From: Pseudooceanicola onchidii
GTDB lineage: Bacteria > Pseudomonadota > Alphaproteobacteria > Rhodobacterales > Rhodobacteraceae
Length of the DNA stretch: 64,000 nucleotides
NCBI RefSeq assembly: GCF_004959925.1
Contig: NZ_SPUW01000002.1
Span: 310,001 to 374,000, forward strand
Direction of reading: 5' to 3'
Shown piece by piece: positions 50,259 to 64,000 of the stretch. How positions within the stretch are numbered: position 1 is the first letter of the stretch; each line of letters starts with the position of its first letter. The notes beneath the pieces were generated by a model. It saw nothing but the letters and a program-made list of their open reading frames with translations, was not told where the DNA came from and did not search any database. A program made the translations under genes and the position numbers.

Positions 50259-50344
<86 letters not shown>

Positions 50345-50345
<1 letters not shown>

Positions 50346-50467: not shown

Positions 50468-50941
50468 ATGAGACGCCTTGCCCTGATCGCCTGTTTCGCC
50501 GCCGCCCCCGCCCTGTCGCAAGAAGTGCAGACGCATCGGGACTGGTCCGTTCTGAAGGGGCAGGGCGGGTGCGTGGCGACCACCAGCGTCGGGCTGAAGG
50601 AACCGGGATCCGGGCTGGCGACGCTGGCGTTCTATGACCGGAACGATGCGGCGGTGCCTGCCACCGTGACGGTCCGGGTGCCGCTTGGCGCGGATCTGGC
50701 CAGCGATATTGCCTATACCCATGCCGGTCGCGACGATGCGGTCGGTCTGGCGTGGCAGTTCTGCGATGACCGGACGTGCCTGGCCAGCGGCGCCGTGTCG
50801 GCGACCGAGATCGCGCGGTTGCAGCGGGGCGAGCGGGTGTTCCTTGCCTTCCGGCCCCTGCCGGGATCGCGGGCGCTGATCCTGCCGGTATCGCTGATGG
50901 GGTTCACCCGAAGCTGGGACGCGGTTCAGGCCTGCGATTGA
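50468..50941 (+). CDS. IalB-family (invasion-associated locus B) secreted protein
   Basis: 157 residues with a signal peptide (RLALIACFAAAPALS, cleaved before Gln18). The mature part has the IalB pattern: a Trp-containing N-terminus (RDWSVLKGQGGCVA), Cys35, a second Cys pair in WQFCDDRTCLA and a final Cys near the end. It should be periplasmic; in Bartonella IalB is linked to host-cell entry, but environmental alphaproteobacteria carry many IalB-like genes of unknown role. Its last 16 bases overlap the 3' end of the LuxR-type gene in antisense. Confidence 0.72.
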   Translation: MRRLALIACFAAAPALSQEVQTHRDWSVLKGQGGCVATTSVGLKEPGSGLATLAFYDRNDAAVPATVTVRVPLGADLASDIAYTHAGRDDAVGLAWQFCDDRTCLASGAVSATEIARLQRGERVFLAFRPLPGSRALILPVSLMGFTRSWDAVQACD

Positions 50942-52680
50942 TTGCGCAGCGCGCGGATGGCCTGCACGACCTGGTCCGGGCGCCGGTAGAACAGCAGCTG
51001 CCCGGTCGAGGGCAACATGTTCAGCACCACCCGATCCGCATGTCGTTCGGCAAAGGCGCGGACCGAGTCGGACGACACCACGGGGTCGGTTTCGCCATGC
51101 ACGATCCGGATCGGCACGTCCGAGCCCACCATGTAGCGTGACCAGTCGGTGACGACGTGGCGGCTGTCGATCTCGAAGGCGCGGTGGCCGCGCGCGGTGG
51201 TGAAGCGATAGCCGTTCAGCACGATCTCCTGCACCTCGGGATCGACCACGGACGGCAGGTCGTCGGGCGAATTTTCGTACAATGACATCAGGAACTTGCG
51301 TTCGCCCCCGCTGCGCATCTGGCGGATGCCGGCGCGCAGCATGAAGGGCAGGACGCGCGGGGTGTAGCGGGCGGTATAGGCCACGACGCGCTGGCGGGCC
51401 GACATGGTGGCGAATTGCCCCGGACCCAGGATCGGGACGCCGCCGGCCACCGACACGATCCCGGCGATCTGGCCGGGTTCGGCGGCAGCGGCCGTCGCAT
51501 AGGCATAAAGCGCGCCGCCCATGTGGCCCAGCAGGATCGGCCGGTCCAGCCCGGTCTGGCGGATCATCTCAAGCACGTCGGCGGCAAAGCGGTCGGGGCT
51601 GGTGGTGATGTCGCCGTGATCGGGATCGGCGGCGCCGAACCAGGGGCGCACCGGGCAGAGAAACCGCAGGCCGTGTTCATACAGCAGGTCGCGGCAGTGA
51701 TCGGTGATGGCGTTACCATCCAGCATGCCGTGAAAGAAGATCACCGGCGTCCCGGTGTCGGGCCCGTGAATTTCGACCGGCATGACGCGGCCGTCGGGCA
51801 GGGTGATCCGGCGCAGGCCCGCGCCCTGCGGCATCAGCGGCGCACGGTCGGGGTTGTCTACCGCGATCCGCGCCAGCAGGTGCAGCAGCCGGACCAGTTC
51901 GGGCTGCGCGGTGGTGCGGGTCTTGGCCATGATCTTCTTGATCTGGGTGCGCACCGTGGCCAGCGAGGCGCCGCGCATCTCGGCGATCTCGGCCGCGGAA
52001 TTGCCGTCGGCGATGCCTTCGCAAACGTCGATCTCGGCCTGGGTCAGTCCGAAGTTTTCGCGCAGCAGGGGCACCGTGCCGGCAGGCCAGACGGTCGACA
52101 GCTTGGAGACCATGATCAGCTCGTCGCCGGTGCCTTCCGTGATCACGCGCGCCTGGAAATGCATCGGCCGGTCGCTTTTGCCCGAGGGCATCGGGAAGAC
52201 CTGCGGCCGCAGCGTCCGCCCGCCGGCGGGACTGGCCACGGCGGCGGCCATGTCGCGCAGGCCCTGCAACCGGTCCTCGGGCAGGTCCAGCCGGTCGAGC
52301 GTGTCGCCCCGGCGGAACCGGAACAGCCGTTCGGCAGCGGCATTGTACCAGACCACGATGCCGCGCCCGTCGATCAGGAAGCGCGGGGCGCTGCGGTTGT
52401 CACCGGGGGCGAGGGTTGAATGTCCGTCCGCCGTGGGCGGGGGCATGGTTTCCTCAAGCAGTCGCGAGGCGATGGCGAAGTGTGATTCAAGCTCGGCCAC
52501 GCCGTCTTCGGTGCGGGATTCGATCCGTTCCGCGACGTAGGCGTCCCAACGATCCATGAAGGTGTCGTAGCTCTGCGAATCAAGGGCGATACGGTAGATC
52601 GCTTCGATCAATTGGTCTTTGCGTTCGGCCGCAGAATGGCTGGCCTGGTCTGAAATGGTCATACACCATTTGTGGTACAT
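50926..52680 (-). CDS. PAS-LuxR regulator fused to an inactive alpha/beta-hydrolase domain
   Basis: 584 residues in three parts: a PAS-like domain (about 90-200, with RFLIDGRGIVVWYNAAAERLF), a LuxR-type helix-turn-helix (about 210-260, FGLTQAEIDVCEGIADGNSAAEIA), and a C-terminal alpha/beta-hydrolase fold (about 285-580, HGMLDGNAITD near the oxyanion loop). The nucleophile elbow reads GHMGGALYA: the expected Ser is Met387. The expected catalytic His near the end is Gln561 (STGQLLFY), while the acid Asp532 (GETDPVV) is kept. The domain therefore probably senses a ligand. A downstream start at 52662 is possible. Divergent from the giant adhesin gene. Confidence 0.85.
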   Translation of the reverse strand: MYHKWCMTISDQASHSAAERKDQLIEAIYRIALDSQSYDTFMDRWDAYVAERIESRTEDGVAELESHFAIASRLLEETMPPPTADGHSTLAPGDNRSAPRFLIDGRGIVVWYNAAAERLFRFRRGDTLDRLDLPEDRLQGLRDMAAAVASPAGGRTLRPQVFPMPSGKSDRPMHFQARVITEGTGDELIMVSKLSTVWPAGTVPLLRENFGLTQAEIDVCEGIADGNSAAEIAEMRGASLATVRTQIKKIMAKTRTTAQPELVRLLHLLARIAVDNPDRAPLMPQGAGLRRITLPDGRVMPVEIHGPDTGTPVIFFHGMLDGNAITDHCRDLLYEHGLRFLCPVRPWFGAADPDHGDITTSPDRFAADVLEMIRQTGLDRPILLGHMGGALYAYATAAAAEPGQIAGIVSVAGGVPILGPGQFATMSARQRVVAYTARYTPRVLPFMLRAGIRQMRSGGERKFLMSLYENSPDDLPSVVDPEVQEIVLNGYRFTTARGHRAFEIDSRHVVTDWSRYMVGSDVPIRIVHGETDPVVSSDSVRAFAERHADRVVLNMLPSTGQLLFYRRPDQVVQAIRALRNQSQA

Positions 52681-52812: not shown

Positions 52813-55800
52813 ATGAAGCAACCGGGACATTTGACCCAAGCCATTGGCGCGGGAAAATCCATTGGTCGGCCTCTTCGGGGGTACCTGGCTGCTTTGATCA
52901 TTGCCTCGTCCAGTATTCAACCGGTCGCGGCACAGGTCGTCAGTGACGGACAAACGCAGACCGGCGTGTCCGTCACTGGCACCACAACCAACGTCACCAC
53001 GCAGACGATCAGCCAGGGGCACGGCGTCAATTCGTTCTCGTCGTTCAATGTCGGGTCCGGCCAGACGGTGAACCTGCATGCGCCGACGGGCACGGCGGGG
53101 ACCGTCAACCTGATCAACGGGTCGCAAAGCCAGATCAACGGCGTGGTCCAGTCGATGCAGGGCGGGCAGGTCGGCGGCAACATGTACCTGGCCAACCCGC
53201 AGGGATTCGTCGTCGGGCCGAACGGTGTCGTGCGCGGCGGATCGGTGTCGATGAGCACCCCGAGCCAGGGGTTCATGGACGGCGCGCTGTCGGGCGGGAT
53301 CAGCGGCAGCCATGTCCAGGGGATCGTCAGCGGCACCGCGCCGCTTGGCGACGGATCGATCGACATCCAGGGCCGGGTCGAGGCGGGCAGCCGCATCGGG
53401 CTGCGCGCAGGTGGTCAGGTCATCGTCGGCGGCACCCTGTCGGCCGGAGAGATCATCAACGGTGGTCAGGGCGCCATCGACATCGAAGGCCATCGTGGCG
53501 TGATCTTTGGCAGCGGCGCGCAGGTCACGGCGCGCAACGGGGCATCCGGCGGGTCGATTTCGGTGCGCAATTCCGACCGGATCGAACTGCGTCCGGGCGC
53601 GCGGATCCGGGCGGATGGCGAAGGGGCGGGCCAGGGCGGCACGATCATCATCTTCGGCGGCGACGCGGCGGTTCTGGACGAGGGCGCGGTGGTCAGCGCG
53701 GTGGCGCATGGCACGGGCGACGGCGGGTTCATCGAATTCAGCGCGCACAACCATGTCGAGGCCCTGGGCGAGCTGGACGTCTGGTCGCAGGCCGGTGACG
53801 GCGGCACGGTCCTGATCGATCCGCTGACCCTGACGATCAACGATCGCGACACCAACGGCGGCGACCTGATCCTGACGGCGACCGAAACGATCACCCTGAC
53901 CGCCGGATCGCGGATCGACCTGGTTGGCAGCGACAGTGTCGGCAACCTGACGATGACGGCGCCACACATCATATTGGAAGAGGGAAGCGAGATCATCGCG
54001 CTCGCCGCCGACGGAAAGTCGGGGGGCGATGTTCTGATTCTGGCCAGCCGCAATGACAGCCTGTCGGGGCAGGACGATGCTTCGGGCGACAGCGCGGGCA
54101 ATGCCTCACCTCTCGGGTCGGCGCGGATCTCGGCCACCGGGGCGCTGATCATGGGGGCGAACGTCCGGCTGACGGCAGTCGCGCTGAAGGACAACCTTGT
54201 CGACATCGAAACGGCGGCGGATGCCTATGTGAACGGGCTGATCGATCCGAACGGCAATATTCCCGGTGCGGCGGATCTGAACGCCATGGCCAAAAGCGTG
54301 GTCGACGGGCTTGTCGACCTGCTGCCGGATATCGATTTCTCCGTCCTGCCCAGTTTCCAGCAGGCCAAGGCCTTGATCGAGATCGACGGCAGCTATATCC
54401 GCGCCCTCAACGAGGCCGAGGTGATCGCAGAGGCGACCACCGTCCTGCATATCGAGCCGGCCAATTCCAACCTCGCGCTGGCCATCGGGGCCAGCAACAC
54501 GGTGGCCACGACGATCTTCCAGGACAGCGCCATCGACGCGGGCGACATCAAGGTGAAGGCGGTGGTGAACGAAGATCACCGGATGGTCGCCAAGTCGGGC
54601 CTGCAGGGCGATGCCGACAGTGCCGAGGTCGCGGCGATGAACCTGGCCATCGCGGCCTCGATCCGGCGGTCGCGGGCGACGGTGATCGTGAATGGCGCGC
54701 GCCCGGCGCTTGGCTTTGACGAAAACGCCAGCCGCGATCCGGATGTGAACCGTTATCTGCCGTGGTCGCCCAACTTCGATCAGGGGGAATATGCGCTTCT
54801 GGTGTCGCAGGGCGGGCTTGAGATCGCGTCGGAGACCGTCAAGAACATCGTGCTGAAATCGGACGCGGTGACCAACGATCAGACCCGCGCCATCGCGCTG
54901 AGCCTGTCGATCGACGACACCAAGACCGAAACCCATTTCGGCGGCGTCATCGCCGGAGAGGCCGGTCACGCCAGCATCACCGCAACCACCACCTATGAAA
55001 CCTTCGGGTCGCGGGCGCGGGTCAGCGGCGGGCGGTATGCCGTGGCGGCGGTTTCCCCGGATGCGGCAGATCAGGAGATCACGCCGGAAGAGCAGCAGGC
55101 GCAGCAGGATGTGGCGGTCGATCTGGCGCTGGACATCGCGGCGGCGATGGATCCGTCGAGCGCGGTGCTGAATGCCCTGTCCGGCGGCGGCGCGGGTTCG
55201 GGCGGGGATTCCAATGACGGTCGGCTTGGCGTGTCGGTCAACCTGTCCGGTCACCGGACGCAGACCACGGTCAACTTCGGCAGCACGACCTTCCAGTACG
55301 AGGCGCCGGACGGCACCCTTCGGTCGCTGCATGCGCCCAAGGTGGAAGCCATCGCTGACGGGTCCTATGGCCGGTCAGGCGGCCAGTTCTACGGCGATCA
55401 CACCAAGGTCGACCTGGCCTCTGATCCGACGGTGGTGGTCGCGGCGCGCAATGTCTTCGAAGACATCCGGGTCGAGACGATCACCCAGCTTGGGTCGGTG
55501 CCGGAAAGCGATCCCGAGACCCCGGGCGAGCTGACCGGAGAGAGCGAAGAGGACCTGGCGCAGAGCGGCGAGACTGCGATCCTGATCGCACTTGGCTATG
55601 CCGACTGGCAGTCGCAGGCCGAGGTGCTTCTGGACGACGGTGGCCTTGATCAATACGGCGCCGAGATCCGCGCCGTGTCGGATATCGAGGTGATCGCCGA
55701 GAACCGCTTTGCCGAGACAGAGGGCCGCGCCGACGTGGGCGACTGGTGGGGCGATTATCGCGAGGCGCTGGTCGAAACCGAAGCCAACCCCGAGGGCGCC

Positions 55801-58800
55801 GATGCCGAGCCCGCGCCGGATGCGGGTGAAGGTGCCGGCGGTGAAGGCGATGCGGGCGAGGGCGACGCCGGGGATGCCGAGGCCGAGGACGACGAAGCCG
55901 AGGGCGAACAGGGCCGCAAGGGTCGGATCGGCGGGATCGCGGATGGCCGTCGGGCGTCCCTGACCGGCGATGCCGTGGACGGCGACGACGACGGCAAGCC
56001 CGAAGCCGCCCCCGATGCAAGCGACGCCCCCGAAGACCCCGACAGCGCCGAGGACGAGGTCGCGGCCAGTCCGACGGACGCGCGCATGTTCGTGTCCGAA
56101 ACCACCGGGCGGGGCAAGGAAATCGGGATCGGCGTCAACGGCTTCCTCGTGCGGATGAAGCTTGCCGCCGATGTGACCGTGAATGCCGCGACGCTGGAAC
56201 AGGAAGACTATTATCGTCCGGAAGGCAGCCTGTCGGATCTGAACGCCGACGCCGCGATCCGCATCCACGCGGCCAACCGGGGCGACATCGTCCTGGGCGC
56301 CGGGGCGCCCGGCACCTCGACCGGCGGTGAGAAGGCGGGCTTTGGGGCGGCCATCGGGCTGGCCATCATCAATGCCGAGGCGAAGACCACGGTCAGCGAC
56401 GCAGCCCGGCTGTGGATGCACGAGGTCGAACAGCGGTCGGATCAGGACCTGCTGGTGGTGAACACCGCCCGGGCGCATTCGATGAACGACGACGGCGGGT
56501 CCGGCCTGAACGCGGGCCTTGCCATCACGCGCTACAAGGCGGTGACGCAGGCCTTCAACCACGCTGACGAGATCGCCTTTTCGGACAAGTCCGTGTCGAT
56601 TGCCGCGGTCGACGGATCCAGCGTCGTGACGCTGGCCGGATCGGGTACAAAGGGGGCGAAGAACAACCTTGCGATCGGCGTCGCGATCAACCTGACCGAC
56701 CGCACGACGCGGGCGACGCTGACCAGTTCGCGGGTCAATGTCGACGGCGACATCAGCGTGCTGGCGGAAACCAGCGGCTCGGTTCTCGCGGCAGGCACGG
56801 CGTCGTCGCAGGATCGCGAGGCGCCGGAAGAGCCGGAAGACGCGCCCACGGACCCGGACGCGCCCGAGGCCGAGGCGCCCGAGGAAACCGACGCGAACAC
56901 CGAAAAGGCCGAAAGCGTCGACATCGGGGAAGACCTGCTGGGCGATCAGGCGGATGCCATCGCGGCGGCGGCGGGCAATGGCGATGATGGGACGGGCGGA
57001 GGTTCGGGTGGCGGTGATGCGAAGCGCACCTTCAGTTTCTCGGGCGATTTCGCGGGCACCTTCGGCAAGACGACGACCAGTCTGCTGATGGAAGGCGCCG
57101 ACGTGGCCACGGGCTTTGGCGCGACCGCGACGTTCGATGCGCTGACCAACGTCCAGTACGGGCAGGCCTCGGCCGTCAATGCTGTGGCGGTGGACGGTGT
57201 CGGGATCGCGGGCAGCTTTGGGCTTGCCTTCGTCGATCATTCGACCACGGCACGGATGCTGGGGTCGGCGCTCTATTTCTACGAAAGCGGTCTTGAGGAG
57301 TTCGACGGAACGGACCCGGCCCTGTCGCGGCTGAGCGCCCGGGATCAAAGCGTCTTCGACGTCATCGTCACCGGCCGCAGCAGCCATGCCGAAGACGGCT
57401 GGGGCGTGGCGGTCAGCGCCAGCTTCAACCGGATGCGCATCGATGCGGAAACCGAGGTCGCCGACAGTTCGATCACCAACGGCATGTTCTGGGGCACGCC
57501 CGGCACAGGCGGTGGCGATGGCGGCTTCGGCGAAGGCGGGGAAGGTGATCTGGGCGAGCTGGAGGGCGGTTTCGGCGAAGGCGAATTCGAACTGGACCTT
57601 GGCGGTGGTGAAGGCGAGGGCGAAGGCGGCGGGGACGACGACTTCTGCATCGATGGCATCTGTTCCGACAACACGCGCGGCCGGGTTCTTGAAATCGCGT
57701 CCGAGGCGAATGCGACCTCGTCGGTGACGGTTCTGGCGGCACGCGATGCGGTCGGTGCGGAATCGAGCGGCGGGCAGCAGATGGACAAGGTGTCGAACCA
57801 GTTCACCGATGCCGCCGATCAGGCCAAGGATCCCGGGACGGTGCCGGATCAGGCCCCCGACGCGGGCGACGGATCCGGCGGCGACGCCCCGGACCAGAAA
57901 GAGAAGGGGCAGGGCTTCAAGGGGGTCGATATCGCGATCGCCCCGTCCCTGGTCGAGGCCGACAGCCGCACCCTGATCCGCGACAGTCTTCTGCTGGTGG
58001 ATCGCGATGCGGATACGGTGAAAGCCGACGGCGAATTCACCGCCGGGCGCATCGACATCACCAGCCTTGCGCGCACCCAGGCCGTGGTCGACGCGTCCTC
58101 GGGGACGGTCGGGCTGAGCTTTGCGCAAAGTCGGACCAGCGGTCTGGTCAAGCTGGATCGCAGCGTCGTCACTGCCTCGGGTAACGGCAGCATCAACGTG
58201 ACCTCGCGCGTGCAGGAGGTGCAGGAGGTCGCGGCGCGGGTCGACAACCAGAGCCGGTTCAAGGTGGCGGGCGTGCTGTCGCTGCGCGATGCGCTGAACC
58301 GGGTCGAGGTCGACACCGATCATGACCAAGCTGTGTCGGTCCTGACGGGCGGGGCCGGTGTGGCGATCAAGGCGGATACGACCCATGACGTGCAACTGTC
58401 GGCGATCGCCTCGGACAGTTCGTCGCTGATCCTGGCGGGGGCCGGGATCGTGTCGCTGGCACAGTCGGACACGGCGTTGCTGTTCGGCGGGTCGGTCGGC
58501 ACGACCGCATCGGGCGCGGCGACGCTTGGGGCGTCGGACGTCTTTGAACGATTCAGCGCGACGGCGGTGACGACAACAGGCGCCTTCACGCCCGAAGACC
58601 TGGACGCGAAGATCGCCGAGGACGAGGCGGCAGAAGGCGGCGACACCGACACCCCGGCCGGTGCCAAGGGTGAACGCGAACCCAAGACCGTCGGACGGCA
58701 GGGGCGTCCCGCCGGGGTCGACAACGCGGGCCTGATGAACGCGCTGGCCGACGTGACCGACAGCGCCAACGAAGACATCACCGCCCCGGCCCAAGGCGAC

Positions 58801-61800
58801 GCGCCCGACGCGGGCGATGCGCCGGACGACGACAAGAAGGCCCGGACCGCGCCGACCTTTGCCGTCGCCGTCAACATCGACCGGCACGACAGCACGGTGC
58901 GGGCGCTGATCGGTGGGGCCGGCGTGGATGCCGGGACCGACCGGGCCTATGACCTGCGGGGCGCGCAGCTGTTCGGCGGGGCGACAGGCGCCACGCTGTC
59001 GGCGCTGAACCAGGTGCAGGCCTACAACAAGCTGACGATGACCCGGGCGGGATCGGTCGACGGCACGTCGTTCGGGTTCATGGCGTCGGTGTCGCTTGGT
59101 TTCGGCAAGATGGAAACGCTGGCCGAACTCGGCACGACCAAGGCCGGTGGCACGGCGCAGAGCCTCACGCTCGATGCACGCACGCGGCTGCCCGATCCGG
59201 CCATCGCGCCGCTTGAGCAGGCGCTGACCGACAGCGGCGACAGCATCGTCGGGACCGTCGATGCGGCGGGGCTGCTGGCCGACGACCTGATGCCGGATCC
59301 GGCCCTGACGCTGGATCGTGACGCCTGGAACGTGACCAACCGGACAGAGGGCGAGGCCAACGTCGGGTTCGTCTTCGACGTCGGGCTGCAGAGCTATGAC
59401 CTGACCACCACGGCGCGCGTTGCCGACGGTGCGCTGGCCCAGTCGACCGGGAGCCTGTCGGTCACGGCCCAGACCAGCGGCGGCGTGATCACCCTGCGCG
59501 ATATTCCCGCCGCCGCCGCGAAGGCCCCGGAGGACGAGGCCGAGGATGATCCCGACAAGACCCAGGACGACAAGCGCGAAGAGACCGCGCAGGACGTGGG
59601 CAAGTTCGGGCTGGGCGGTGCGCTGCAATACGTGCGGTCGCGCGTCGATACCCGGGCCGAGGTCAACGCCACCGCCGCCCCGCTGACCCTGGGCAGCCTG
59701 TCCATTTCGGCTGTGAACGACATTACCGCCCTGACGACGGCCAAGTCCTTCGGCGGAGCGGACGGGTTCGCCTTCAACGCGGGCGTCGCGATCATCGACC
59801 ACAAGGGCAGCGCCATCGCGCGGCTGGACGACGACACGCCGCTGACCGTCACGGGCACCACGCAGATCGCCGCCACGGACAGTGCCAAGTTGCTGGCGCT
59901 TGGCGGGGCGGGCACGCAGGCGGGCAAGGTCGGCTTTGGCCTTGGCCTTGGACTGGTCTTTGCCGACCGGCTGGCCACCGCCAATGTCGGGGATCAGTCG
60001 GGGGAAGCGCTGGCGGACAGCCCCGCCGCGACAACCGGGGTCGCCATGGATCTGGGGACCGCCACCGTGACCTCGACCACCGCCGGCTGGAGCGCGGCAG
60101 GCGCCACGGCCGGTGCAAGCGGGCTTGAGGCCGAACGCGAGGCGCGCAAGACGCCAGAGGCTCCCGAGGATCCCGATGCCGATCCGGAGGACAAGTCGCC
60201 TGAGAAAATCAGCCTGCCGGGCAACCTGACCGCTGATCGCGAGGCCGAGCATGCCGAGGGTCTGGGCGAGCAGACAACCAGCGACGAGACCGACAAGGAC
60301 GAGGTGTCGGACAAATCCTTCGGGCTGGCCTTCGCCGCAGATTTCGCTGGGGTCTTCGGCACGAATCGGTCCGCCGCCGGGCTGACCACGACCGGCGCGC
60401 TGGATCTGGACGGGCTGACCGTCACCGCCAGCAACACGGCCGCGGCGCGGCTGGCCTCGGGGGCGAGCGTCGGGGCGGGTGGCAGCGTCGGGCTGGCCGG
60501 GTCGGCCTCGATTTCGGGGATCAAGACCTCCGTCACGGCGCTGAACATCGGGTCGGACCGGGTGATGAACGACGGCGACGCGCAGGTCGTGGCGCAGGAC
60601 AGCGGTGATCTGATCGCCACGGCGGCGGGGCGCGGCGGGTCGGGCAACGACTTCAGCTTTGTCGGCGCGGCCGCGCTGCATCTGGGTCGATCGGACGTGT
60701 CGGCGCTTCAGACCTCGGGACTGTTCGGCGTGGGCGATGCGGCGCTTGGCGCGCAGCTCAAGGGCCATACCGCCGCCATCGCGGGGTCCCTGTCGGTCGA
60801 GGCGGTGGACGAAGCCAAGGCCGAGGCCACCGGGGACGATACGAAAGAAGATGCGTCGTCGCTTCTCAATGATCTCGACATGAGCGACACGCCGATCCCG
60901 GACGAGGCGGCGGATGAAGGCGGCGATGCGGGTGACGACTCCGGCGACGGGTCGGGTGGCGAAGACAACAGTGCCTTCGGCATCGGGATCTCCTATGCCT
61001 CGACCCTGCGCGCGGAAACCGTCACGGCGCGGCACACCGGCGGTGTGATTTCGGGCGATGCGTTCGAGATCGAGGCCGAGACCAAGCGCAACGTGCTGTC
61101 CGTCGCGGCCTCGACCGGCGGCGATTTCACGATCCAGCTGAATGCCTCGGTCGTGGTGAACCTGCTGACCCAGACGACGCAGGCGATCTACGAAGCCGTC
61201 GAATGGCAGGGCAACAGCCTGGACGACATCACGGTCGAAGCGAAGAACGCCACGACGAACCTGGCGCAGGTCGGGTTCCTGGGCACGTCGGCCGGTGATT
61301 TCGGGCTGGGCCTGTCGGTCACCGCGCAGGTGGATCGCCGGACGACGACGGCCTGGATCGTCGACAGCATCATCGACCACCACACTGCGCGCGGTACGGC
61401 ACATGTCACGGCGGCGCAGACCGGCGACGTGCGGTCGCTGATCGTGGCGGGGCAGCGGTCTTCGGACATGGCGGCCAACGTTCCGGTCGGGGTAATCGCG
61501 AACAGCTGGACCACCACCGCCAAGGTCGAGGAATCCCGGCTTCTGGAATTCGACAGTGTCGACATCACGGCGCGCGAGGCCGCAACGGTCGACAACCGTC
61601 AGGACGCCAAGACCTATGCCGACAGCGCGGGCACCTTCGGCAATGCGATCACGCGGCACGCGTCGTCGGTGCTGGCCCTGGTCGAAGGCGGAGAGATCCG
61701 CGCCGCCGGGTCCTCTGCCAGTGCCACCAGCGAAACGCTGCACCACGTCATCGCCCTGCGCGACGGCGAGGCCGAGGATACCGCCGCGACGCTCTTCGCC

Positions 61801-64000
61801 CTGCTGGACGCGGTTGGCGAAACGCGGGCCCAGGTGACCGATGCCACCGTGCGCGGCGGGCTTGGGCTGACCGCCACGGATGCCACGCAGCGCGACCTGC
61901 TGGTCAACGGCAATGCGATCAACGAGGGCACGGGCGTGTCGGGCGGTGTGTCGCTGGACCTCTACAAGCGGGACGTGATTGCCCGGGCGCTGCGGTCGTC
62001 GCTTGGCGGCGCGGGTGACACGGCCGTCCGCGCGCTGTCGGCGACCAAGGCGTCGAACGTGGTCATCGGGCGCAACGGCGGGTCGTCGGACAATGCCTTC
62101 CAGGCGAATGTCAGCTGGATCACCGATGCCCGCGACGTGGTAGCCGAACTGGTCGCAAGCCAGTTTGACGGCAGCGGAAACCTGGCGTTGACGGCCACGC
62201 GCGACGATCAGTTCTTCGCGGCGCAGGGCAGTGACAACCGGGCATCGTCGAGCGTGGGTCTGGGTGCGGGGATCTTCAAGTTCCACGGCACCACGGCCGC
62301 ACGGATCACCGGGGTTTCGGCGATTTCGACCGGCGGCGACCTGGCGCTGACGGCGCGGAATTCGACCAAGGTCCTGACCGTGGGCATCGGCGTCACCGTC
62401 GGCGGCAGCTTTGGCGGCGTCGGCAGCTTTGCCTATGTCGATTACGGCCAGCGCCCCGACGACCTGCCGCAGATCGACGGTGACGAGCGCGGCCTGCTGC
62501 TGCGCGACGCGATCGAGACGGGCTATGGCACGGTGCGCGACTGGGTGGACGACACGACCGGGATCGGCCTGCCGCAGCTGGATCTGACCCGCGAGACGTC
62601 GATCGTGGCGCGTCTGGCCGTCACGGCGGACGAGCTGACCATCGGTGGCGACCTGAGCCTGACCGCACTGGATGCGCGCAAGGCCGATGCGGTGACGGGT
62701 GCGATGTCGCTTGGGCTCGATATCGGGTTCGTATCGGGGATCATCGACAAGTGGACGATTTCCCGGAACGAGGAGACCGGCAAATTCAAGATCGTCAAAC
62801 GCGACATCCTGCCCAAGGCCGACGAGGCCGCCGGTGATGACGCGGAGAGCGAGAATGAAGTCGATGCGCCCGATGACAGTGCCGGGGGCGATGCCTTTGA
62901 CGGTGCGGGTGACAGCGCGGATGGCGACAGCGGTGACGGGGACGGCGAAGGCGACAGCAGCTATTCCATCGGCGTCGGCCTGAGCTGGGTGCGCGTCGGC
63001 GGCATGGTCGAGGCCGACCTTGACCTGAGCCGCACGCAGTCGATCGGCGTATCCGGCGCGACGCAGCTGTCGGCAGGGTCGACCACGGCGACGATGACCG
63101 GATCGGCCGGGGCGGCCTTCCTTGGCAACGCCGTGGGCGCAGGCGGGGCCGTGTCGCGGCAGGCCCAGTGGGTACGGTCGCGTATCCATGGCGGCGGTAC
63201 GTTGCGGACCGGATCGCTGTCGATGGACAGCCTGTCGGACAACCGGATGTGGGCCATCGGCGGCGCGCTGGCGATCGGCGAAGACGTGGCCCTTGGCGCG
63301 ACCATCGGGCTGAGCGAACTGCATGCCCGCACCTCGACCCTGATCGAAGACGGTGCCGTCATCGCGGCGGGCGGGGCGGCCAGCCTGTCGTCGCGCGATG
63401 ACACCCGCGCGCTGTCGGTGTCGATCTCGGCCGGGGGGTCCACCGGCAGCACGGCGGTGGCGGCGGCGAACGGGCTGATGTTCAGCCGTGCAGCAGTGGA
63501 AACGCGCCTGCGCGGGAATTCATCGCTTGAGGCCGGCGGTCGGGCGACCCTGCTGGCCACCCGAAGCCAGGAACTCGCGGGCCTCGCCTACACCGTGTCG
63601 GTGGCGGATACGGTTGCGGTCAGCGGCGGGCTTGCGCTGGCCTGGGATCGCGGGATCACGACCGCGCAGGTCGAGGACGCGGCCCTGAGCGCCGGGTCCG
63701 ACGCGCAGGTCGCCGCGCGCAACACCACCAAGGTGGTCACCAGCGCGGTTGGCGGATCGATCGGCATGACGGTCGGGGTGGTCGGCTCGGCGGCGATGAC
63801 CCTCAAGGAAGACACAGTGCTGGCGGAAATCGCCGACAGCACCGTCACGGCGGAGGACACCGTCGTCGTCGAGGCGCTGAACGGCGGTCGTCTGGATACC
63901 GTGGGCGGCGGCAACGAAAGCTTCTTCGGGAACTTCGATCAGGTCGGCGGCGGGCTGACCTATGGTGGATCGGCCGGTATCGGGGTGTCGATCGGGGCGA
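52813..64000 (+). CDS. Giant filamentous haemagglutinin-like adhesin, two-partner secretion type (3' end outside window)
   Basis: The reading frame is open from ATG 52813 to the window edge: 3,729 codons with no stop found. A signal peptide (through AQPVAA, about residue 40) precedes the TPS/haemagglutination-activity domain (about 41-300), with SFNVGSGQTVNL, a run of Gln/Asn/Gly, and NPQGFVVGPNGVV (near residue 128), the family's NPxG-type motif. The rest is a degenerate beta-solenoid of short repeats (patterns like VGVSVxxxxxxAxI and LSVTAxxSG), similar to LktA-type filamentous adhesins. Nine acidic linkers interrupt it near 55774-56085, 56815-57024, 57496-57684, 57820-57918, 58591-58851, 59518-59604, 60124-60315, 60826-60969 and 62815-62961. 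A TpsB outer-membrane transporter should lie downstream; not seen here. Confidence 0.88.
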   Translation, partial: MKQPGHLTQAIGAGKSIGRPLRGYLAALIIASSSIQPVAAQVVSDGQTQTGVSVTGTTTNVTTQTISQGHGVNSFSSFNVGSGQTVNLHAPTGTAGTVNLINGSQSQINGVVQSMQGGQVGGNMYLANPQGFVVGPNGVVRGGSVSMSTPSQGFMDGALSGGISGSHVQGIVSGTAPLGDGSIDIQGRVEAGSRIGLRAGGQVIVGGTLSAGEIINGGQGAIDIEGHRGVIFGSGAQVTARNGASGGSISVRNSDRIELRPGARIRADGEGAGQGGTIIIFGGDAAVLDEGAVVSAVAHGTGDGGFIEFSAHNHVEALGELDVWSQAGDGGTVLIDPLTLTINDRDTNGGDLILTATETITLTAGSRIDLVGSDSVGNLTMTAPHIILEEGSEIIALAADGKSGGDVLILASRNDSLSGQDDASGDSAGNASPLGSARISATGALIMGANVRLTAVALKDNLVDIETAADAYVNGLIDPNGNIPGAADLNAMAKSVVDGLVDLLPDIDFSVLPSFQQAKALIEIDGSYIRALNEAEVIAEATTVLHIEPANSNLALAIGASNTVATTIFQDSAIDAGDIKVKAVVNEDHRMVAKSGLQGDADSAEVAAMNLAIAASIRRSRATVIVNGARPALGFDENASRDPDVNRYLPWSPNFDQGEYALLVSQGGLEIASETVKNIVLKSDAVTNDQTRAIALSLSIDDTKTETHFGGVIAGEAGHASITATTTYETFGSRARVSGGRYAVAAVSPDAADQEITPEEQQAQQDVAVDLALDIAAAMDPSSAVLNALSGGGAGSGGDSNDGRLGVSVNLSGHRTQTTVNFGSTTFQYEAPDGTLRSLHAPKVEAIADGSYGRSGGQFYGDHTKVDLASDPTVVVAARNVFEDIRVETITQLGSVPESDPETPGELTGESEEDLAQSGETAILIALGYADWQSQAEVLLDDGGLDQYGAEIRAVSDIEVIAENRFAETEGRADVGDWWGDYREALVETEANPEGADAEPAPDAGEGAGGEGDAGEGDAGDAEAEDDEAEGEQGRKGRIGGIADGRRASLTGDAVDGDDDGKPEAAPDASDAPEDPDSAEDEVAASPTDARMFVSETTGRGKEIGIGVNGFLVRMKLAADVTVNAATLEQEDYYRPEGSLSDLNADAAIRIHAANRGDIVLGAGAPGTSTGGEKAGFGAAIGLAIINAEAKTTVSDAARLWMHEVEQRSDQDLLVVNTARAHSMNDDGGSGLNAGLAITRYKAVTQAFNHADEIAFSDKSVSIAAVDGSSVVTLAGSGTKGAKNNLAIGVAINLTDRTTRATLTSSRVNVDGDISVLAETSGSVLAAGTASSQDREAPEEPEDAPTDPDAPEAEAPEETDANTEKAESVDIGEDLLGDQADAIAAAAGNGDDGTGGGSGGGDAKRTFSFSGDFAGTFGKTTTSLLMEGADVATGFGATATFDALTNVQYGQASAVNAVAVDGVGIAGSFGLAFVDHSTTARMLGSALYFYESGLEEFDGTDPALSRLSARDQSVFDVIVTGRSSHAEDGWGVAVSASFNRMRIDAETEVADSSITNGMFWGTPGTGGGDGGFGEGGEGDLGELEGGFGEGEFELDLGGGEGEGEGGGDDDFCIDGICSDNTRGRVLEIASEANATSSVTVLAARDAVGAESSGGQQMDKVSNQFTDAADQAKDPGTVPDQAPDAGDGSGGDAPDQKEKGQGFKGVDIAIAPSLVEADSRTLIRDSLLLVDRDADTVKADGEFTAGRIDITSLARTQAVVDASSGTVGLSFAQSRTSGLVKLDRSVVTASGNGSINVTSRVQEVQEVAARVDNQSRFKVAGVLSLRDALNRVEVDTDHDQAVSVLTGGAGVAIKADTTHDVQLSAIASDSSSLILAGAGIVSLAQSDTALLFGGSVGTTASGAATLGASDVFERFSATAVTTTGAFTPEDLDAKIAEDEAAEGGDTDTPAGAKGEREPKTVGRQGRPAGVDNAGLMNALADVTDSANEDITAPAQGDAPDAGDAPDDDKKARTAPTFAVAVNIDRHDSTVRALIGGAGVDAGTDRAYDLRGAQLFGGATGATLSALNQVQAYNKLTMTRAGSVDGTSFGFMASVSLGFGKMETLAELGTTKAGGTAQSLTLDARTRLPDPAIAPLEQALTDSGDSIVGTVDAAGLLADDLMPDPALTLDRDAWNVTNRTEGEANVGFVFDVGLQSYDLTTTARVADGALAQSTGSLSVTAQTSGGVITLRDIPAAAAKAPEDEAEDDPDKTQDDKREETAQDVGKFGLGGALQYVRSRVDTRAEVNATAAPLTLGSLSISAVNDITALTTAKSFGGADGFAFNAGVAIIDHKGSAIARLDDDTPLTVTGTTQIAATDSAKLLALGGAGTQAGKVGFGLGLGLVFADRLATANVGDQSGEALADSPAATTGVAMDLGTATVTSTTAGWSAAGATAGASGLEAEREARKTPEAPEDPDADPEDKSPEKISLPGNLTADREAEHAEGLGEQTTSDETDKDEVSDKSFGLAFAADFAGVFGTNRSAAGLTTTGALDLDGLTVTASNTAAARLASGASVGAGGSVGLAGSASISGIKTSVTALNIGSDRVMNDGDAQVVAQDSGDLIATAAGRGGSGNDFSFVGAAALHLGRSDVSALQTSGLFGVGDAALGAQLKGHTAAIAGSLSVEAVDEAKAEATGDDTKEDASSLLNDLDMSDTPIPDEAADEGGDAGDDSGDGSGGEDNSAFGIGISYASTLRAETVTARHTGGVISGDAFEIEAETKRNVLSVAASTGGDFTIQLNASVVVNLLTQTTQAIYEAVEWQGNSLDDITVEAKNATTNLAQVGFLGTSAGDFGLGLSVTAQVDRRTTTAWIVDSIIDHHTARGTAHVTAAQTGDVRSLIVAGQRSSDMAANVPVGVIANSWTTTAKVEESRLLEFDSVDITAREAATVDNRQDAKTYADSAGTFGNAITRHASSVLALVEGGEIRAAGSSASATSETLHHVIALRDGEAEDTAATLFALLDAVGETRAQVTDATVRGGLGLTATDATQRDLLVNGNAINEGTGVSGGVSLDLYKRDVIARALRSSLGGAGDTAVRALSATKASNVVIGRNGGSSDNAFQANVSWITDARDVVAELVASQFDGSGNLALTATRDDQFFAAQGSDNRASSSVGLGAGIFKFHGTTAARITGVSAISTGGDLALTARNSTKVLTVGIGVTVGGSFGGVGSFAYVDYGQRPDDLPQIDGDERGLLLRDAIETGYGTVRDWVDDTTGIGLPQLDLTRETSIVARLAVTADELTIGGDLSLTALDARKADAVTGAMSLGLDIGFVSGIIDKWTISRNEETGKFKIVKRDILPKADEAAGDDAESENEVDAPDDSAGGDAFDGAGDSADGDSGDGDGEGDSSYSIGVGLSWVRVGGMVEADLDLSRTQSIGVSGATQLSAGSTTATMTGSAGAAFLGNAVGAGGAVSRQAQWVRSRIHGGGTLRTGSLSMDSLSDNRMWAIGGALAIGEDVALGATIGLSELHARTSTLIEDGAVIAAGGAASLSSRDDTRALSVSISAGGSTGSTAVAAANGLMFSRAAVETRLRGNSSLEAGGRATLLATRSQELAGLAYTVSVADTVAVSGGLALAWDRGITTAQVEDAALSAGSDAQVAARNTTKVVTSAVGGSIGMTVGVVGSAAMTLKEDTVLAEIADSTVTAEDTVVVEALNGGRLDTVGGGNESFFGNFDQVGGGLTYGGSAGIGVSIGA

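What the first reader, a model, noticed from the sequence alone, without database searches (positions are those of the whole stretch)
50926..52680. LuxR-type regulator whose hydrolase domain has lost both nucleophile and catalytic histidine
Seen: the C-terminal domain has the alpha/beta-hydrolase layout, but the nucleophile elbow is GHMGG (Met387 where GxSxG requires Ser) and the position of the catalytic His is Gln561 (STGQLLFY), while Asp532 stays. Known: PAS-LuxR-hydrolase fusions exist, and hydrolase folds have become hormone receptors elsewhere (for example gibberellin and strigolactone perception in plants). Inference: loss of two of three triad residues in an otherwise well-kept fold suggests a ligand-binding sensor coupled directly to a DNA-binding domain.
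Basis: partly seen in the sequence, partly recalled or inferred. Interest (0 to 1): 0.75.

Follow-up and report, generated by a model that had tools for sequence, protein, structure and literature searches.

The report
Dead-enzyme domain repurposed in bacterial regulator
A bacterial gene switch carries an enzyme-shaped domain that has lost its cutting residues across its whole branch of the family yet is still strongly preserved, and it probably senses a small molecule to control its own gene and a giant surface adhesin next door.

Summary
In detail: the 584-aa minus-strand protein (N-terminal helices, PAS-like domain, LuxR/GerE HTH, alpha/beta-hydrolase domain) has Met387 in the nucleophile elbow, Asp532 kept, and Gln561 in place of His. 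The state is clade-wide. In a 139-row tree the window's 28-row clade has Ser387 in 0 rows, Asp532 in 27 and Gln561 in 24. Intact Ser-Asp-His triads (7 of 139 rows) lie only in a separate 16-row clade. The domain is not decaying: dN/dS is 0.05-0.17 in 11 close pairs. The lid, least conserved part of the hydrolase domain in the clade that holds the intact triads, is its most conserved part in two triad-less clades. New here: a palindrome of the ATACMCCAWWTGGKGTAT type at the gene's start, the best match in the host genome, recurs upstream of many relatives, and its half-site variants go with one HTH residue. The gene is divergent from a giant LktA-family filamentous adhesin, a pairing repeated in other genera. 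Best reading: an autoregulated one-component regulator whose ex-hydrolase domain is a non-catalytic sensor, working like plant GID1. Ligand binding, DNA binding and adhesin control are inferred, not shown.

The parts
50926..52680 (-). regulator gene, 584 aa as called; likely start Met7 at 52662
   Evidence: alternative start inferred from the palindrome
52447..52632 (-). N-terminal helices, residues 17-78
   Evidence: DSSP of the model; motif (L/V)I..IY conserved in A1
52093..52395 (-). PAS-like domain, about residues 96-196
   Evidence: five strands in the model; Pfam PAS 18.4 bits, below its cut-off
51886..52047 (-). LuxR/GerE helix-turn-helix, residues 212-265
   Evidence: Pfam GerE above cut-off; T242, R244, Q246 and K253 in at least 62 of 63 Gln561 rows
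50947..51816 (-). alpha/beta-hydrolase-fold domain, residues 289-578, non-catalytic
51514..51528 (-). nucleophile elbow GHMGG, residues 385-389, Met387 for Ser
51136..51450 (-). lid (cap) region, residues 411-515
   Evidence: helices in the model; lid conservation
51085..51087 (-). Asp532, retained triad acid
   Evidence: D in 121 of 139 rows
50998..51000 (-). Gln561 at the catalytic His position
   Evidence: Q in 81 of 139 rows, 24 of 28 in the window's clade
52661..52678 (.). 18-bp imperfect palindrome GTACCACAAATGGTGTAT (minus strand), candidate operator at the regulator start, 135 bp before the adhesin ATG
52813..64000 (+). divergent giant filamentous adhesin (NF012204, leukotoxin LktA family filamentous adhesin), runs beyond the window
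   Evidence: (open frame 7392 aa)
50468..50941 (+). convergent IalB-family gene (start Met read from the sequence)
   Evidence: Pfam IalB 49.3 bits; neighbour in relatives

Best explanation
This is a one-component transcription regulator whose C-terminal alpha/beta-hydrolase domain has become a non-catalytic sensor. Shown: the triad is lost in the whole clade, the domain and above all its lid are under purifying selection, and a palindrome recurs just upstream of many members. Inferred: a dimer of the GerE HTH binds this palindrome at its own promoter; a small, probably hydrophobic or ester- or lactone-like molecule enters the former active site, where Asp532, Gln561 and the His317-Gly oxyanion loop remain, and is held rather than cut; lid closure changes HTH geometry or dimerisation and so transcription of its own gene and, in the adhesin-linked loci, of the LktA-family adhesin and IalB genes. 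The PAS-like domain may supply a second input.
For: Clade-wide loss: Ser387 0 of 28, Gln561 24 of 28, Asp532 27 of 28. Purifying selection in 11 close pairs: ABH dN/dS 0.050-0.165, lid 0.025-0.135; lid below PAS in the 10 pairs where both could be computed. Lid/core identity ratio 1.12 in the window's clade and 1.14 in the LGxD clade, against 0.56 in the 16-row clade that holds all 7 intact triads. Palindrome core at 9/10 or better upstream in 38 of 75 window-clade and pattern-retrieved loci (0 of 75 inside genes; 3.7% of shuffles) and 9 of 13 of the intact-triad clade, but 1 of 67 in the LGxD/DDQ clades. Best match in the host genome is at this gene; reversed-pattern control 0. Half-site follows HTH residue 245: 11 of 13 Asn245 rows have ATGACCC, 0 of 18 others. 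Adhesin pairing and sites before IalB or IalB-adhesin genes in two relatives. GID1 precedent of His loss plus lid adaptation: passages of PMC3531792.
Against: No ligand, pocket or DNA-binding measurement exists. The nearest relative (L002/L078, 63%) has only a weak palindrome (12 of 18) and no adhesin within 10 kb. The window's own site is imperfect (2 mismatches to the degenerate consensus; 8 of 10 on the core, under the 9/10 threshold). Only 10 of 54 pattern-retrieved loci have a divergent giant TpsA/RTX ORF within 1.5 kb, so the adhesin link is not general. Lid conservation could equally reflect a protein interface. The Asn245 rows are mostly one subclade, so they are few independent events.
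Confidence: 0.6

Rival explanations
1. The ex-hydrolase domain is a protein-protein or dimerisation module, not a small-molecule receptor: the conserved lid is an interface with another protein or the second subunit.
For: Same data: the lid is the most conserved part of the domain in the triad-less clades. The elbow residue drifts among Met, Leu, Arg, Gly, Asp and others, which does not look like one fixed ligand contact.
Against: Residues of the former active site stay fixed: H317, G318, R345, G389, D532, G560 in all 63 Gln561 rows of the window clade and pattern set (the 63 were selected on Gln561). A pure scaffold has no obvious need for them.
Confidence: 0.22
2. The domain is still an enzyme with a non-canonical mechanism, or acts on a cognate substrate with Asp532 and water.
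For: Asp532 is kept in 121 of 139 rows and the oxyanion HG motif in most of the window's clade; some relatives have Asp at 387 with Asp532 and His (L067, L146), the epoxide hydrolase/dehalogenase arrangement (recalled).
Against: In the window's clade both Ser and His are missing in 27 of 28 rows (L205 keeps His); the His-Asp-only enzymes of this fold known to me (cofactor-free dioxygenases, recalled) need the His.
Confidence: 0.1
3. The palindrome is an RNA hairpin or other element of the 5' region and not an operator of this regulator.
For: An 18-nt inverted repeat with a 4-nt centre can also form a stem-loop; a similar sequence lies between the convergent recN and paralogue genes of the host, where a terminator is likelier.
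Against: Half-site letters change with HTH residue 245. In G082 and G418 the site stands before IalB or IalB-adhesin genes instead of, or as well as, before the regulator. No T-run follows the window's site.
Confidence: 0.15
4. The hydrolase domain is a decaying remnant without function.
For: Loss of two triad residues.
Against: dN/dS of the ABH region 0.050-0.165 in 11 pairs; conservation close to the HTH (0.39 against 0.42) and above the PAS-like domain (0.22).
Confidence: 0.02

Closest known systems
LuxR/FixJ-type (GerE) one-component regulators
   Same: GerE HTH above the Pfam cut-off; palindrome at the own promoter
   Different: HTH in the middle, not at the C-terminus; no autoinducer-binding domain hit in Pfam; C-terminal hydrolase fold
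GID1 gibberellin receptor (plants), derived from hormone-sensitive lipases
   Same: alpha/beta-hydrolase receptor that lost the catalytic His, with lid adaptation (passages of PMC3531792)
   Different: GID1 keeps Ser and Asp, is a separate protein and signals through DELLA/SCF; here Ser is lost too and the domain is fused to an HTH. Works like, not member of
KAI2/D14 receptors and Bacillus RsbQ
   Same: alpha/beta hydrolases used in signalling, four-helix cap (passages of PMC3548789)
   Different: triad intact in KAI2 and treated as active-hydrolase-like in DAD2 and RsbQ in those passages; not fused to a DNA-binding domain (recalled)
PAS-LuxR-hydrolase relatives with intact Ser-Asp-His (L073, L211, L217, L218, L221, L225, L226)
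   Same: matched by the same full-length profile; palindrome upstream in most of that clade (9 of 13 rows tested)
   Different: triad complete; lid poorly conserved
Proteins annotated 'alpha/beta fold hydrolase' in Rhodobacterales plasmids, e.g. Ruegeria sp. TM1040 TM1040_RS01565
   Same: full-length relatives, 24-28% identity
   Different: named as enzymes: 29 of the 30 listed rows (of 36 records) bear 'alpha/beta (fold) hydrolase', one a LuxR name

Membership tests
LuxR/GerE HTH regulators | GerE-type helix-turn-helix | tested here: met
   Pfam PF00196, 24.6 bits, cut-off 23.5, residues 212-265
LuxR/GerE HTH regulators | binds a palindromic DNA site | not testable with these tools
   only sequence evidence: palindrome upstream, half-site tracks residue 245
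AHL-type LuxR quorum-sensing receptors | autoinducer-binding domain | tested here: not met
   no such family among Pfam hits to E 1
alpha/beta-hydrolase fold | fold | tested here: met
   Pfam above cut-off; model and Foldseek
active serine hydrolases | Ser nucleophile in GxSxG | tested here: not met
   Met387; 0 of 28 clade rows have Ser
active serine hydrolases | catalytic His | tested here: not met
   Gln561; 24 of 28 rows Gln, 1 of 28 His
active serine hydrolases | catalytic acid | tested here: met
   Asp532; 27 of 28 rows
GID1-type receptors | binds a small ligand in the former active site under the lid | not testable with these tools
   no ligand data; analogy only
GID1-type receptors | orthology to plant GID1/HSL | not tested
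   no comparison run; best PDB sequence and fold hits are bacterial esterases and perhydrolases

The most novel reading that the evidence does not exclude
A large alphaproteobacterial family of one-component receptors in which an alpha/beta hydrolase, fused to a LuxR HTH, lost its nucleophile and then its His and became a small-molecule receptor, a bacterial parallel to GID1 with the DNA-binding domain in the same chain. The window's subfamily uses it to control a giant two-partner-secreted adhesin and IalB proteins through an ATACMCCAWWTGGKGTAT operator.
Probability: 0.4. Interest if true: 0.85.

Novelty: new variant of a known kind. Interest (0 to 1): 0.72.

Why it matters
Databases name such proteins as hydrolases (29 of 30 listed plasmid rows), while the sequence says that this branch cannot be classical ones. 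If the sensor reading is right, it shows in bacteria the enzyme-to-receptor route argued for plant hormone receptors, with both active-triad and triad-less members of one architecture available for comparison. The palindrome and the adhesin neighbour make it directly testable, and a ligand found here could be an unrecognised signal of surface attachment in marine Rhodobacteraceae.

Tried and rejected
Decay or pseudogene: rejected by dN/dS and conservation. Single-protein oddity: rejected, clade-wide. Chance palindrome: in the 64-kb window one match with up to 3 mismatches against 0.08 expected; 8 of 100 shuffles had one; the genome scan with its reversed-pattern control is stronger.

Other host-genome matches at 3 mismatches are not counted as targets: one lies between convergent recN and the paralogue, terminator-like, and one inside a hydrolase coding sequence. 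Among 11 sites with at most 2 mismatches in 10 genomes, 5 are at the regulator and 2 before IalB or IalB-adhesin genes. Of the other 4, one lies by coordinates beyond the 3' end of a second family member (G141), and three (G277 C9, G418 C36, G266 C45) were not looked into. With up to 3 mismatches there are 37 sites against 14 for the reversed pattern, so weak sites are mostly noise. No site at 3 mismatches or fewer stands at the regulator in G012, G082, G141 and G266.

Rooting: on five plain hydrolases the outgroup did not hold together (2 of 5 on the wrong side, one a 5.06-long branch probably read in a wrong frame), so the order Ser-His, then Asp-His, then no His is only suggested (supports 98/99, 88/84, 85/77).

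Promoter scan: one consensus-like site on the plus strand at 52831-52858, inside the start of the adhesin ORF; no help.

Reverse test caveat: the 43% identity cut was chosen after seeing the list; taking all 15 adhesin-bearing genomes, 5 carry the window-clade regulator (hypergeometric 0.001).

Control caveat: the 53 control loci (drawn from L141-L195) hold up to three window-clade genes (L180, L184, L189). Neither set is phylogenetically independent, so the Fisher values are guides only.

Literature: searches gave no paper whose listing describes a LuxR-HTH fused to a non-catalytic hydrolase; PMC4338825 was checked by passages and does not. Subscription papers are not in the library.

Full report
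What is there. Pfam finds a GerE HTH at 212-265 and an alpha/beta-hydrolase domain at 312-548, with a sub-threshold PAS match. AlphaFold2 on an alignment of 44 sequences gave pLDDT 88.6 and pTM 0.79: N-terminal helices, PAS-like sheet, HTH, then a complete hydrolase fold with a helical lid. Foldseek's best PDB match is the alpha/beta hydrolase 9wlv, TM-score 0.86 by target length. By phmmer Met387 stands on the Ser of 9wlv and 1a88, and Gln561 on the His of 9wlv.

How widespread. Relatives at E 1e-25 or better are in 14 of 22 genomes of the genus, at 1e-30 in 84 of 394 of the family, and with profile A1 at 1e-30 in 14 of 385 of the class. In large searches only three candidates per genome were scored, so these are lower bounds. 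After dropping partial and duplicate rows (229 hits to 189), 139 rows came by protein or profile similarity and 50 by DNA patterns containing HGML and GHM, which are biased toward Met387 and left out of the state counts.

Triad states. Of the 139: position 387 Gly 50, Met 19, Ser 19, Asp 17, Leu 10, others; position 532 Asp 121; position 561 Gln 81, His 20, others. Seven rows have Ser-Asp-His, all in one 16-row clade. Of the 19 Ser387 rows 13 are in that clade; the other six (L017, L020, L027, L182, L192, L194) lack His. In the tree on HTH and hydrolase columns, triad columns removed, the window sits in a 28-row clade (SH-aLRT 97, quick search): 387 is Met 16, Leu 7, Arg 3, Ile 1, Val 1; 561 is Gln 24, and one each Ala, Thr, Gly, His; 532 is Asp 27, Asn 1. 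The His row, L205, is a long branch of unsure place. A FastTree of all 189 rows draws a wider clade of 89 around these (support 92): 49 of the 50 pattern rows fall in it, and its 12 further profile-retrieved rows lack Ser387. Relatives with Asp at 387, Asp532 and His (L067, L146) suggest intermediates; a tree rooted imperfectly on plain hydrolases puts Ser-His rows first, Asp-His rows next and His-less rows last.

Not decay. In 11 close pairs dN/dS of the hydrolase region is 0.050-0.165, of the lid 0.025-0.135, of the PAS region 0.123-0.225 in the 10 pairs where it could be computed (one pair, L068/L069, is of the Asp-Ser-His type). Against 27 clade rows the window's identity is 0.42 in the HTH, 0.39 in the hydrolase domain, 0.22 in the PAS region. 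Mean pairwise identity of lid and first core part, aligned within each group: window's clade 0.389 and 0.349, LGxD clade 0.534 and 0.469, the 16-row clade with the intact triads 0.207 and 0.373 (same trend). So the lid passes from the least to the most constrained part of the domain where the triad is gone. In GID1 the same pair of changes, loss of the active-site His and adaptation of the lid, is proposed (passages of PMC3531792).

A candidate operator. Upstream of the adhesin-linked regulators stands an 18-bp palindrome, e.g. ATACACCAACTGGTGTAT in L085 and ATACCCCATATGGGGTAT in L105. The core CCCAWWTGGG at 9/10 or better occurs within 260 bp upstream in 38 of 75 window-clade and pattern-retrieved loci, 9 of 13 of the 16-row clade, 1 of 67 LGxD/DDQ loci and 2 of 24 of the rest; inside the genes 0 of 75, 0 of 13, 1 of 67 and 1 of 24; shuffles 3-5%. 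The window's site, GTACCACAAATGGTGTAT at 52661-52678, has 2 mismatches to ATACMCCAWWTGGKGTAT and only 8 of 10 core letters, but it is the best match in the 3.67-Mb genome, with two others at 3 mismatches and none for the reversed pattern. In nine relatives, counting G000 too, a site at 3 mismatches or fewer lies at the regulator in 6 of 10 genomes. In 12 genomes with the ATGACCC variant, 8 of 12 sites found lie upstream of the regulator, reversed-pattern control 0 (the consensus came from these loci, the rarity elsewhere did not). Among 31 window-clade and pattern-retrieved loci with a strong palindrome, 11 of 13 with Asn at HTH position 245 have ATGACCC half-sites, 0 of 18 with Thr, Ala or Ser do. 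This supports direct binding, with few independent events.

The neighbour. Divergent from the regulator, its ATG 135 bp beyond the palindrome, is a giant ORF, 7392 aa open frame in the genome, matching NCBIfam NF012204, leukotoxin LktA family filamentous adhesin (111.8 bits; a family label). A TpsB-like ORF follows it (L227:977-2776, read by eye). An IalB gene lies convergent. Of 54 pattern-retrieved loci with at least 1.5 kb upstream, 12 have a giant TpsA- or RTX-type ORF within 6 kb and 10 have it divergent within 1.5 kb; among 53 comparison loci 2 and 1 (caveats in Tried and rejected). TpsA: L083, L085, L086, L087, L098, L103, L104, L122. RTX-motif ORFs: L088, L089, L096, L105. In reverse, of 394 family genomes five carry an adhesin at least 43% identical (G000, G418, G273, G082, G277); all five carry a window-clade regulator, found in 24 of the 394, and in three the two are adjacent and divergent. 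In G082 the two genes are on different contigs, and the best palindrome of that genome (1 mismatch) lies upstream of an IalB-like gene directly before the adhesin. In G418 a 1-mismatch site stands about 120 bp before a second IalB-like gene. Against this, the nearest relative (L078, 63%) has no adhesin within 10 kb.

Conclusion. The data support a non-catalytic hydrolase-fold domain kept by selection in a DNA-binding, probably autoregulated protein; a sensor for a small molecule is the most likely role (about 0.6 with the operator and target inference), a protein-interface role the main rival. It files as a LuxR/GerE-HTH regulator and an alpha/beta-hydrolase fold, not as an active serine hydrolase and not as an AHL receptor; it works like GID1 by analogy. 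No listed paper in the held library describes it.

Noticed in passing
window 52661-52680: Annotated start codon 1 overlaps the palindrome; codon 7 ATG (52662) is a likelier start.
   Followed up: partly
window 52813-64000 and L227:977-2776: Very large two-partner-secretion locus: LktA-family filamentous adhesin of 7392 aa open frame followed by a TpsB-like ORF.
   Followed up: partly
L262:2746-4569 (host genome C1): Paralogue in the same genome, of another clade (Asp387, Asp, Ser561), convergent with recN; relatives of the LGxD clade often sit beside a recN-like gene (14 loci).
   Followed up: partly
L099; L064/L077 (G535); L181 (G372): Tandem copies of the regulator family in one locus.
   Followed up: no
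L131-L140 (mostly Leisingera): Subclade with Arg at 387 and Ala or Asp at 561 (Arg-Asp-Ala, once Arg-Asp-Asp), a further way of losing the triad.
   Followed up: no
L068-L070, L195, L210; L067, L146: Relatives with Asp at the nucleophile position and His kept, resembling epoxide hydrolase or dehalogenase elbows; in the first five the acid is Ser.
   Followed up: partly
window 50259-50345: tRNA-Leu (cag) upstream of the IalB gene.
   Followed up: yes
window 55375-63324 (-): 2649-aa antisense ORF inside the adhesin gene, a mechanical by-product of high G+C.
   Followed up: no
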